Shown: positions 23,196 to 47,818 of the stretch, piece by piece
Layout of the letters: each line of letters begins with the position of its first letter
Position numbering within the stretch: position 1 is the stretch's first letter
Source: Desulfovibrio sp. JY
GTDB lineage: Bacteria; Desulfobacterota; Desulfovibrionia; Desulfovibrionales; Desulfovibrionaceae
DNA: 64,000 bases
Assembly: GCA_021730285.1 (NCBI GenBank)
Contig: CP082962.1
Coordinates: 1,860,001 to 1,924,000, forward strand
Direction of reading: 5' to 3'
The notes under the pieces: model-generated
Told to the model about the DNA's origin: nothing
What the model saw: the letters and a program-made list of their open reading frames with translations, nothing else
Database searches by the model: none
Translations under genes and position numbers: made by a program

Positions 23196-23340
23196 TTGGT
23201 TGGCTGGTCGGCCTGGGGCTGGGGCGGCCACGGGCGGCGCATATTTGAAGAATACGCCTTCGTGCCCGCCCCAGCCCCAGGCCGACCCTGGTCACGCGAA
23301 CCATCGTCGGGGGTAATCTCCCATGATCCGCCGCTTGATT
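23196..23340 (+). ncRNA. Structured intergenic element A with conserved apical hairpin
   Basis: A long hairpin is formed by 23206-23227 pairing perfectly with 23266-23287 (22 bp, arms start GGTCGGCCTGG). Inside are a 4-bp stem CACG/CGTG (23229-23232 / 23261-23264), a GGCG/CGCC stem, and an inner TATT/AATA stem closed by TGAAG. The 29 bases 23234-23262 are identical to element B (28564-28592, opposite strand), and the 3' flank CCTGGTCACGCG and a later TGATCCGCC are also shared. A palindromic terminator-like repeat follows 160 bp downstream. The strand is chosen for consistency with that repeat; the opposite strand would place it in the leader of the gene at 22574-23164. The rest of 23165-23514 shows no gene. 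Confidence 0.6.
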
Positions 23341-23449
23341 CCAGCCCATGCCTGCAAAAAACACAAGGCATTCCCGCTGGCTTTCAGGCGTTTTCCCGGA
23401 GACCGATTTTATTGAGGATATCTTTTTGAAAGTTTTTGGGGGAGGGGGG

Positions 23450-23490
23450 CCGGGGGAGGAGACCTTTTTTCAAAAAGGTCCCTCCCCCGG
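23450..23490. repeat. Palindromic repeat, copy 2 (terminator-like)
   Basis: Arms CCGGGGGAGG and CCTCCCCCGG enclose GACC-TTTTT / AAAAA-GGTC with one bulged A. The left flank AGTTTTTGGGGGAGGG matches copies 1 and 7. It lies 25 bp after the stop of the TauE-type gene (minus) and downstream of element A (plus), so it could terminate both. Confidence 0.8.
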
Positions 23491-23514
23491 CAGCTCTCTA
23501 TCAATTCTCAACGA

Positions 23515-27679: not shown

Positions 27680-28252
27680 ATGCTCCCGTTTTTCGGATCC
27701 AAAAGCGAAAAGGATATTGGCGACCGGTTGCTTGGCAAGCCGCGTCGCTTCCGTCTGCCCCGCCATGGCGCGGCCGTGACCGTCTACGGCCGGCTGGTCG
27801 CGTTTTTCCGTCGTGAACATGAGCCCGATGGGCTCATGCCGCCGGCGCCCGGCCGGGTGGAACTCATCGCCCTTTTCGTCACCCGCGCCGGCCGCTACCT
27901 CGTCTACTACGTCGTGGCCTACCCCGAGTCCGAAGATATCGCCGGCCGCCACGAATACATTCATGTTCTGGAAAACCTGACTTCCGTGCGGACCTTCCTG
28001 GCCGCCATGCACTATCCCAATCGGTCCGATTTCGCCGACAGGCTGGTGGAGCAGGCCCTGGCCACCCTGGAAGGCGGTCAGGCCAAGGGGAAAAAGGTCG
28101 TCCAGGCCGACACCGGCATCGAGACCCTGGCTCCCGCTCCCACCCCGGCTCCCGCGCCGGACGAGACGACCGCTGTCGCCGATGCCCCCGCCGCGCTTGT
28201 CGCGGGAGGAGGGGCAAAGGACGCCTCCGGCGGCCAGGGGAAAACTTTTTGA
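27680..28252 (+). CDS. Protein of unknown function with Pro/Ala-rich tail
   Basis: The 190-residue soluble protein has GGAGG nine bases before the ATG. Residues 1-135 look like a compact alpha/beta domain (RVELIALFVTRAGRYLVYYV) without a motif that I recognise. The tail (about 145-190) is low-complexity Pro-Ala-Thr-Gly. The stop codon lies in the loop of a terminator hairpin, so the last residues GGQGKTF are encoded by the repeat itself. It is monocistronic by context. Confidence 0.75.
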   Translation: MLPFFGSKSEKDIGDRLLGKPRRFRLPRHGAAVTVYGRLVAFFRREHEPDGLMPPAPGRVELIALFVTRAGRYLVYYVVAYPESEDIAGRHEYIHVLENLTSVRTFLAAMHYPNRSDFADRLVEQALATLEGGQAKGKKVVQADTGIETLAPAPTPAPAPDETTAVADAPAALVAGGGAKDASGGQGKTF

Positions 28253-28269
28253 AAAAAGTTTTCCCCTGG
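28234..28269 (+). repeat. Palindromic repeat, copy 3 (terminator overlapping a stop codon)
   Basis: Arms CCAGGGGAAAACTTTT and AAAAGTTTTCCCCTGG flank TGAA, which contains the stop TGA of the gene at 27680. The right flank ACCCCTTTCAAAAACTTGTAACGG-type sequence is shared with the copies at 49.7 and 56.4 kb. Confidence 0.8.
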
Positions 28270-28479: not shown

Positions 28480-28636
28480 CGGGCGGATCAAGATTTCCGG
28501 GGACGACAGCGTTTCCAAGTAAGAAGCGCGTGTCCAGGTCCGTCGGGGTGGGCGGAGCGGACGCGAAGGCGTATTCTTCAAATATGCGCCGCGCGCGGCC
28601 GCACCGCCCACCCCGACGGGCAGGCAGGCAGCCAAC
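28480..28636 (-). ncRNA. Structured intergenic element B, partner of element A
   Basis: On the minus strand 28604-28619 pairs perfectly with 28540-28555 (16 bp, arm CCGTCGGGGTGGGCGG). Inside are a GCGG/CCGC step, a CGCG/CGCG stem (28594-28597 / 28562-28565), GGCG/CGCC, and the TATT/AATA stem with TGAAG loop. The outer stem differs from element A but pairs perfectly, and the inner stem shows an A-T to G-C compensatory change. Flanks GGTTGGCTG (5') and CCTGGACACGCG (3') also match element A. It lies downstream of the ferredoxin operon, read in the same direction; repeat copy 3 follows about 210 bp further on. The rest of 28253-28786 shows no gene. Confidence 0.6.
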
Positions 28637-28737
28637 CCGCCGGACAGACAGTCGATACCTTTCCATTCCATGAAAGCAGTGACGGGCGAACGCCCGCACA
28701 CCCGGGATACGGCGAACGCCGTTCTTGCAAAGGGCGT

Positions 28738-44258: not shown

Positions 44259-44398
44259 GGCGCAGGAGGCTGGGGAGGAACCGGGGCGCTGCCCCGGGCC
44301 CCGCCGGGAGGCCATGGGCCCCCCGGACCCCCCGTCCGGTGTGCTTTGGCTGGGCGGGGGAGGGGATGGCTGGCGGTAAGGCGGAGTGTGGAGAAGAT

Positions 44399-44466
44399 GG
44401 CGGCGGAATTTGTCGGGACGGTGCCGCCGCTTCGCGGCAGGCTCGTCCCAAACAAATTCCGCCGCC
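44399..44466. repeat. Three-tier inverted repeat 1
   Basis: Outer arms of 15 bp (GGCGGCGGAATTTGT / ACAAATTCCGCCGCC), a middle GGGACG/CGTCCC stem and an inner TGCCGC/GCGGCA stem nest in 68 bp. It lies in the GC-rich, gene-free stretch 44259-44716. A smaller perfect hairpin GTCGCCCC-TTT-GGGGCGAC follows at 44476-44494. Confidence 0.75.
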
Positions 44467-44543
44467 ACCACGCCAGTCGCCCCTTTGGGGCGACATTCGG
44501 GAAAAAGAGTTTCTTAAAATGCGGCGCTTCGCCGCTGGCGTGG

Positions 44544-46468: not shown

Positions 46469-47818
46469 ATGACCGAAACGGCGTGCGAGAATGCCGGCCG
46501 GCTCTCCGACCGTCTGGCCGCGTTGACGCGGTGTTTCGCTTTGTCGCGCCTGGTCACGGAATCGCTGGATCTTTCCGAGGTGTTGGAACGCATCATGACC
46601 ACCTCGCGCCAGGCGCTTTCGGCCGAGGCGGCCAGCCTGCTGCTGGTGGACGAAACGCCCGGGCCCGGCCAGGGCGATCTCATCTTCACCGTGGCCCAGG
46701 GGCCGGCCTGCCAGGACCTGCGCGGGGGCTTTCGCCTGGGCCCGGGCGAGGGCGTGGCCGGCTGGGTGGCGGCGCGGGCCGAGCCGGTGCTTCTTGTCGA
46801 CGCCTATGACGATCCCCGTTTCAATCCCGATGTCGATCGCCTGACGGGCTACCGGACGCGGTCCATGGCCTGTGTGCCCCTTTTGTACCGGGGGCGGGTC
46901 ATCGGCGTGGCCCAGTGCATCAACAGGGCCGGAGGCGGGGCGTTCACCCGTGACGAGGTGGAGACCTTTTCGCTGTTGGCGGCCCAGGCGGCGGTGGCCA
47001 TCGTCAATGCCCGGCTGCATGGCGAGGCGCTGGCCAAGCAGCGCATGGAGTTCGACATGGAGGTGGCCGCGGGCGTGCAGCAAAGCCTGCTGCCTCAGGG
47101 GGTGCCGTTGGTGCCGGGCTTCGACCTGGCCGGCGCGAGCCTGTCCTGCGACGCCACCAGCGGCGATTACTATGATTTCATGCGGCGGCCGGCGGCGGCC
47201 GGCGGGCCGGAGCGCTTTTTCGTGGCCGTTGGCGACGTGACCGGGCACGGCATCCAGGCGGCGCTTTTGATGACCTCGGTGCGGGCCTTTTTGCGCGCCC
47301 GGCTGCTCGCTCCGGGCGGCCCGGCCGCCATCGTCGGTGACGTCAACCGGCTTTTGACCTGCGACATGGGCGATTCCGGTCGCTTCATGACGTTTTTCCT
47401 GCTGGAGATCGATCCGGCGGCGGGCGTTATGCGCTCGGTGCGGGCCGGGCACGATCCGGCCTTGCTCTACGATCCGGTCGGGGACACGTTTGCCGAGGTC
47501 GGCGGTCGCGGGATTCCGCTCGGCATCGACGCCGGCTGGACATATGAGGAAAATGTGCTGCGGCCCCTGCCCGAGGGGGCCGTGCTGGTTCTTGGCACCG
47601 ACGGCATCTGGGAAGCCAGGGCCGCTTCGGGCGAGATGTATGGCAAGGCGAGACTGCGTCAGGCGATCGCGCGCGGCGCGTCCGGGGATGCCCGGACGGT
47701 GGTCGACGCGGTGCTTGCGGACCTGGACGCATTTCTCGCAGGGATGCCGCGTCATGACGACGTGACCCTTGTCGTGGTCAAGACGGCGCCTGGCGCCGGC
47801 AAAAAGGAGGTGTCATGA
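46469..47818 (+). CDS. GAF-domain SpoIIE/RsbU-type phosphatase
   Basis: The 449-residue protein has an N-terminal GAF domain (about 20-185: SLLLVDETPG, FRLGPGEGVAGWVAA, RSMACVPLLYRG) and a C-terminal PP2C/SpoIIE phosphatase domain (EFDMEVAAGVQQSLLPQG, GDYYDFM, VGDVTGHGIQAALLM, LGTDGIWE, HDDVTLVVV). It would dephosphorylate a STAS-type antagonist in response to a small ligand bound by GAF. Its stop overlaps the start of the lipoprotein gene (ATGA). No STAS gene is adjacent; the nearest is at 11.3 kb. Confidence 0.9.
   Translation: MTETACENAGRLSDRLAALTRCFALSRLVTESLDLSEVLERIMTTSRQALSAEAASLLLVDETPGPGQGDLIFTVAQGPACQDLRGGFRLGPGEGVAGWVAARAEPVLLVDAYDDPRFNPDVDRLTGYRTRSMACVPLLYRGRVIGVAQCINRAGGGAFTRDEVETFSLLAAQAAVAIVNARLHGEALAKQRMEFDMEVAAGVQQSLLPQGVPLVPGFDLAGASLSCDATSGDYYDFMRRPAAAGGPERFFVAVGDVTGHGIQAALLMTSVRAFLRARLLAPGGPAAIVGDVNRLLTCDMGDSGRFMTFFLLEIDPAAGVMRSVRAGHDPALLYDPVGDTFAEVGGRGIPLGIDAGWTYEENVLRPLPEGAVLVLGTDGIWEARAASGEMYGKARLRQAIARGASGDARTVVDAVLADLDAFLAGMPRHDDVTLVVVKTAPGAGKKEVS

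What the first reader, a model, noticed from the sequence alone, without database searches (positions are those of the whole stretch)
28480..28636. Element B keeps the pairing while changing the stem sequence
Element B shares the tip of element A but has a different outer stem (CCGTCGGGGTGGGCGG instead of GTCGGCCTGGGGC...) that is still perfectly paired over 16 bp. The inner stem is CACG/CGTG in A and CGCG/CGCG in B, an A-T to G-C compensatory change. Preserved pairing with changed sequence is the classical sign of selection on structure. B lies downstream of a ferredoxin operon and A lies beside a TauE-type exporter gene, so a role in sulfur or redox physiology is possible.
Basis: partly seen in the sequence, partly recalled or inferred. 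Interest (0 to 1): 0.75.

Follow-up and report, generated by a model that had tools for sequence, protein, structure and literature searches.

The report
Dispersed hairpin repeat with fixed tip
The hairpin is one of about fifty scattered through this sulfate reducer's genome, with a nearly constant tip and stem arms that changed together; the matched arms may come partly from one DNA arm being copied from the other, not only from selection on an RNA.

Summary
Element B is real: hairpin 28540-28619, 16 perfect outer pairs, z -9.0 as DNA. It is one of 50 copies in the host genome (genus Solidesulfovibrio), sharing a 22-nt tip core: 39 exact, 11 with one change, none with two or three. Against orthologous copies in a sister species the tip differs at 5 of 483 sites where flank divergence predicts 67. 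Arms differ by 9-10%, with 25 two-sided against 12 one-sided pair changes. Equal length changes in both arms occur at 4 of 19 loci, unequal ones at 7. At 2 of 26 orthologous loci the tip is inverted. Mirrored blocks and tip inversion suggest replication template switching, so pairing alone does not prove selection on RNA. Orientation behind a co-directional gene (47 of 50) and a G-T excess in the inner stem keep an RNA role open. No sulfur or redox theme among neighbours. A new palindromic repeat family with a constrained tip; what reads the tip is unknown.

The parts
28540..28619 (+). Element B, whole hairpin (26-nt arms, 28-nt tip)
28540..28555 (+). B outer left arm, 16 nt, perfectly paired with 28604-28619
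28604..28619 (+). B outer right arm
28556..28565 (+). B inner left arm with the recurrent mismatch A28561 / G28598
28594..28603 (+). B inner right arm
28566..28593 (+). B constant tip (AA / 7-bp mini-hairpin with 9-nt loop / GCG)
28506..28539 (+). B 5' flank, degenerate copy of the flank motif seen before other copies (ends in CCAGG)
28620..28637 (+). B 3' flank, GCAG/GCAG-type tetramer tract
23207..23286 (-). Element A, second copy in the window; 22-nt tip core at 23239-23260

Best explanation
A dispersed, non-coding palindromic repeat, found only in part of the genus Solidesulfovibrio in the searches made. Shown: 50 copies with a common tip; arms that differ between copies and species but stay complementary; strong constraint on the tip; tip inversion at a few loci; loss of the hairpin at some. 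Inferred: the arms stay complementary mainly because DNA replication switches template inside the palindrome and copies one arm from the other, which also explains mirrored blocks and tip inversion. Inferred: the constant tip is a recognition site, most likely read by a protein on the folded hairpin, much as REP-type repeats are read. The protein and the benefit to the host are not identified.
For: 50 of 50 tip matches fit the hairpin model. Covariation 0.474 against 0.125 +/- 0.009 and at most 0.090 slid. Between orthologous copies 25 two-sided against 12 one-sided pair changes, 13 of the 25 including a transversion; mirrored positions at 3725553 and 3280804; equal length change in both arms at 4 of 19 loci. 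Tip inverted at 2 of 26 orthologous loci and in S. alcoholivorans. Outer-stem mismatches nearly strand-symmetric: G-T 21/A-C 15, GG 10/CC 9, GA 6/TC 5. Tip 5 of 483 differences, 67 expected. PMC8794818 names multiple compensatory changes and fully inverted loops as marks of template switching (passages).
Against: Unequal arm-length change at 7 of 19 loci, three of them weakly measured. Inner stem G-T 27 to A-C 12, p 0.02, which an RNA would give. The mismatch near the tip persists in 37 of 50 copies though arm copying should mend it. Orientation bias relative to transcription, 36 to 3. No outgroup orders the changes. No candidate protein; no Y1 transposase found. Two G058 copies keep the tip with a truncated right arm.
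Confidence: 0.45

Rival explanations
1. A multicopy structured RNA (small RNA or 3' element) transcribed from the tip strand, with classical selection for RNA pairing and a protein-bound tip; the compensatory changes are stepwise.
For: Covariation. 47 of 50 copies lie behind a gene of the same direction, none between divergent genes. Inner stem leans to G-T (27 to 12). Constant tip.
Against: Outer stem without significant wobble preference (21 to 15, p 0.41; 20 to 12, p 0.22). 13 of 25 two-sided changes include a transversion. Tip inverted at 2 of 26 orthologous loci. No Rfam family at gathering score in the window.
Confidence: 0.3
2. A spent mobile repeat (MITE-like) with no present function; arms held by template switching alone and the tip alike because the spread was recent.
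For: Patchy range within the genus; hairpin absent at some orthologous loci; two truncated copies.
Against: Most G058 copies are orthologous to G000 copies, so they predate the split, yet the tip shows 5 of 67 expected changes. No tip with 2 or 3 mismatches among 50. No target duplication was evident where the hairpin alone is missing (two loci, by eye).
Confidence: 0.15
3. A transcription terminator or end-protecting hairpin.
For: Position behind a co-directional gene.
Against: A strong short-loop inverted repeat already lies upstream at 45 of 50 loci. No T run follows the stem; a C-rich tetramer tract does in 24 of 50. A terminator needs no constant tip.
Confidence: 0.07

Closest known systems
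REP / REPIN palindromic repeats with RAYT (TnpA-REP)
   Same: Dispersed intergenic palindromes that persist in a genome; hairpin thought to be read by a protein (PMC8266576, PMC8049555, abstract starts in listing only).
   Different: 80-nt hairpin rather than 20-40 bp; no consistent GTAG, GGAG or CGTC tag; no Y1 transposase found; arms differ between copies.
ERIC / MITE-type intergenic palindromes
   Same: Intergenic, multicopy, long hairpin (recalled).
   Different: Tip is the constant part while arms vary; no shared terminal inverted repeat sequence. ERIC itself was not compared by sequence.
Hairpins maintained by replication template switching (PMC8794818, passages read)
   Same: Several compensatory changes at once and inverted loops.
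   Different: There: rRNA and microRNA histories, with loop inversions very rare. Here: a dispersed bacterial repeat with a long tip inverted at orthologous loci. That paper calls the role in maintaining stems less clear.
Second dispersed hairpin family of the same genome (window 44380-44490)
   Same: Long dispersed hairpin, at least 40 places.
   Different: Its sequence, arms included, is 84-96% identical to the other places; different tip.

Membership tests
REP/REPIN | RAYT / Y1 transposase in the genome | tested here: not met
   PF01797: 0 matches at E <= 0.001 in the own genome; control hit in 5 of 14 known genomes
REP/REPIN | GTAG, GGAG or CGTC tag at the hairpin foot | tested here: not met
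   each tag on either side in at most 6 of 50 copies
MITE | shared terminal inverted repeat sequence | tested here: not met
   arms are inverted repeats but differ between copies
MITE | target-site duplication | tested here: inconclusive
   two loci lacking only the hairpin seen by eye, no duplication evident; insertion or deletion not decided
ERIC | ERIC consensus sequence | not tested
   no ERIC sequence was compared
Known RNA families (Rfam 15) | match at gathering score | tested here: not met
   0 in the window; below threshold only hairpin-shaped microRNA matches
Intrinsic terminator | T run directly after the stem | tested here: not met
   printed flanks show none; C-rich tetramers in 24 of 50
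Template-switch-maintained hairpin | several mirrored changes at once, and loop inversion | tested here: met
   direction and timing of changes not ordered by an outgroup
Structured RNA | covariation of paired positions | tested here: met
   does not by itself tell RNA from DNA
Structured RNA | transcription | not testable with these tools
   no expression data

The most novel reading that the evidence does not exclude
A palindromic repeat whose tip is read as a folded hairpin by an unknown protein at dozens of loci, while its arms are rewritten in concert by template switching. The family would be a natural recorder of that mutational process and would show that strong covariation in a hairpin need not mean selection on RNA pairing.
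Probability: 0.35. Interest if true: 0.75.

Novelty: new variant of a known kind. Interest (0 to 1): 0.55.

Why it matters
Covariation is the usual proof of functional RNA structure. Here is a family with very strong covariation that also carries marks of DNA-level arm copying (mirrored blocks, tip inversion, little wobble bias in the outer stem). About 50 replicates and a close sister species make the origin of compensatory changes testable, and the constrained tip points to an unidentified recognition partner.

Tried and rejected
Sulfur/redox regulation: not supported; 10 upstream and 10 downstream genes of the 50 loci were scanned, families found for 7 and 6 of them, three being Fe-S or flavin proteins, without common theme. 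REP with RAYT. Rfam. Flank motif as a repeat of its own: 36 hits against 7 for the reversed control, several of the best being known copies. Gapped pairwise alignment of arms placed gaps unequally in the two arms and was replaced by pair-token alignment, whose 42 pair-indel tokens are partly due to different fold choices. Replication-strand bias is not claimed. A microRNA-like guide reading was not tested. Literature: searches listed no paper that I recognised as describing this repeat (listings only). PMC8794818 was read in passages. PMC3733652 was searched for four terms with no hit. Other papers were seen as listings.

Rows dropped: 6 of 50 copies were left out of A1 because their register needs a shift, which raises the paired percentage. 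One search used 62 copies and skipped 12. One search left out two G058 copies with a truncated right arm (L091, L099). Model R1 was built from 44 of the 50 copies it then found, and only 150 first-look candidates per genome were scored. Printed outputs were cut.

Full report
What is there. Window 28540-28619 holds a hairpin with 26-nt arms and a 28-nt tip. The outermost 16 pairs are perfect. As single-stranded DNA it folds to -41.3 kcal/mol against -20.5 +/- 2.3 for shuffles. The wider stretch 28480-28636 folded as RNA gives z -8.5. Element A, 23207-23286 on the minus strand, is a second copy.

The family. The host genome (G000, one contig of 4,686,982 bases) has 50 places within 3 mismatches of the 22-base tip core: 39 exact, 11 with one mismatch, none with two or three, and none for the reversed control. 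The covariance model R1, built from 44 of them, finds the same 50 places on their own strand (the weakest is 2059117). Anatomy: a degenerate flank motif often ending in CCAGG; a stem of about 26 pairs with a G-rich 5' arm; a mismatch, mostly A.G, at the fifth pair from the tip (unpaired in 37 of 50 in the fixed register); an internal loop; a constant 7-bp mini-hairpin GGCGTAT/ATGCGCC; then in 24 of 50 copies a C-rich tetramer tract.

Host and range. Of 199 genomes of the family searched by pattern, 14 had any match: G000 50, G058 27, G181 3 (one of them a 3-mismatch hit), G080 1, G174 1, all of one genus, and nine others with a single 3-mismatch hit each, which I take as chance. In the named genome collection the exact tip occurs only in records of Solidesulfovibrio and of 'Desulfovibrio sp.' UBA12339 (the window's own genome may be left out there). 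G181's contig of 503,844 bases has the length of NZ_JNJA01000003.1, S. alcoholivorans DSM 5433, hence the genus. With R1, 4 of 14 genomes of the genus match (150 candidates scored per genome). In G058 it adds two copies with one extra base in the tip (L122, L123).

Covariation. On 44 of 50 copies the structure gives 93.9% paired cells and a covariation score of 0.474 (shuffles 0.125 +/- 0.009; slid versions 0.060 to 0.090). All 26 outer pairs show two-sided changes; the tip helix hardly varies. Related copies can exceed shuffles without structure, but the slid control keeps relatedness and is far lower.

Orthologous loci. Of 28 G058 copies examined, 26 match a G000 locus by flanking sequence, one more only weakly (L122) and one not at all (L088). 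In 21 pairs the 23-base tip differs at 5 of 483 sites; the pooled flank rate predicts 67 (unaligned flank ends were not counted, and a few pairs have almost no aligned flank on one side). Arms differ by 9 to 10%, upstream flanks by 18%, downstream flanks by 10%. Four loci carry the same tip variant (CTTCGAAT) in both species, so the tip is inherited at its place and not simply overwritten from other copies. Counted without gaps from the tip, the differences at 3725553/L073 fall on the same eight positions in both arms, and at 3280804/L093 on nine; part of this reflects equal length change, since pair-token alignment reads the same loci as 1 and 5 two-sided changes plus pair indels. Over 21 pairs that alignment counts 497 unchanged, 25 two-sided and 12 one-sided pairs; 13 of the 25 include a transversion. 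Arm length changed equally on both sides at 4 of 19 loci, unequally at 7 (three weakly measured), and not at 8.

One old locus. Between a gene for an amylase-type enzyme (glgB by my reading of the translation) and pdxA, hairpins with the same tip and very different, still paired arms stand in G000, G080 and G174. S. alcoholivorans has the tip there inverted, with a truncated arm.

Inversion and loss. At 46613 and 4243818 the G058 tip points the other way relative to the genes and the flank motif, 2 of 26 orthologous loci. Of six loci compared where the same-strand search had found no G058 ortholog, 456831 and 3846055 keep their flanks but lack the hairpin, 275889, 974025 and 3282416 lack a longer stretch, and 46613 is the inverted one. 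A seventh, 3858709, ran off a G058 contig end. Two G058 copies have an intact tip but a truncated right arm (L091, L099).

DNA or RNA? If pairing were selected in RNA, G-T pairs should outnumber A-C mismatches on that strand. In outer pairs 10-25 of 62 copies there are 21 G-T and 15 A-C, with GG 10/CC 9 and GA 6/TC 5 (p 0.41). A second rule gave 20 and 12 (p 0.22). A small control on the upstream short-loop inverted repeats gave 5 and 1. The inner pairs lean to G-T, 27 to 12 (p 0.02), and all pairs without the constant mismatch give 48 to 27 (p 0.02). Copies share ancestry, so these p values are only a guide. Orientation argues for transcription or for oriented insertion: 36 copies stand between genes of their own direction, 11 between convergent genes, 3 against both neighbours and none between divergent genes. 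The gene finder is my own; 5 of the 36 were first called inside an overextended start; and two pairs of copies share one intergenic region each.

Interpretation. PMC8794818 (passages) names several simultaneous compensatory changes and fully inverted loops as marks of template switching, while calling its role in keeping stems less clear. Both marks are here. I read the arms as kept complementary mainly at the DNA level, and the tip as a selected recognition site; both steps are inferred. The lasting mismatch, the inner G-T excess, the unequal indels and the orientation bias are not explained by arm copying and leave an RNA role at about 0.3.

Neighbours. Twenty neighbouring proteins include TauE, a sigma-54 activator, a fumarate-reductase-type flavoprotein and its Fe-S partner, DUF1800 and DUF1501 proteins, a DEAD helicase, CobD, PrmC and a Fer4 protein, without common theme.

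Noticed in passing
window 44380-44490: A second dispersed long hairpin: at least 40 places in the own genome at 84-96% identity besides itself (40 of 100 candidates scored). Its sequence, arms included, is well conserved, unlike the finding's family.
   Followed up: partly
window 28234-28269; a similar inverted repeat at 23434-23506: Short-loop inverted repeat (CCAGGGGAAAACTTTTTGAAAAAAGTTTTCCCCTGG) that recurs after gene ends upstream of many copies; a strong inverted repeat lies upstream at 45 of 50 loci.
   Followed up: partly
L026, L036, L044, L007, L063, L017, L022, upstream of the hairpin: Tandem repeats of the 5' flank motif before the hairpin: 7 of 50 copies by my threshold, control 1. 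Perhaps slippage at the hairpin.
   Followed up: partly
L056 (2935242 and 2935428) and L025 (3030191 and 3030405): Two intergenic regions each hold two copies about 200 bases apart; G058 showed one match at the first of them (L085).
   Followed up: no
L102 and L119: Draft contigs end at or near hairpins of the family, so draft genomes may undercount copies.
   Followed up: no
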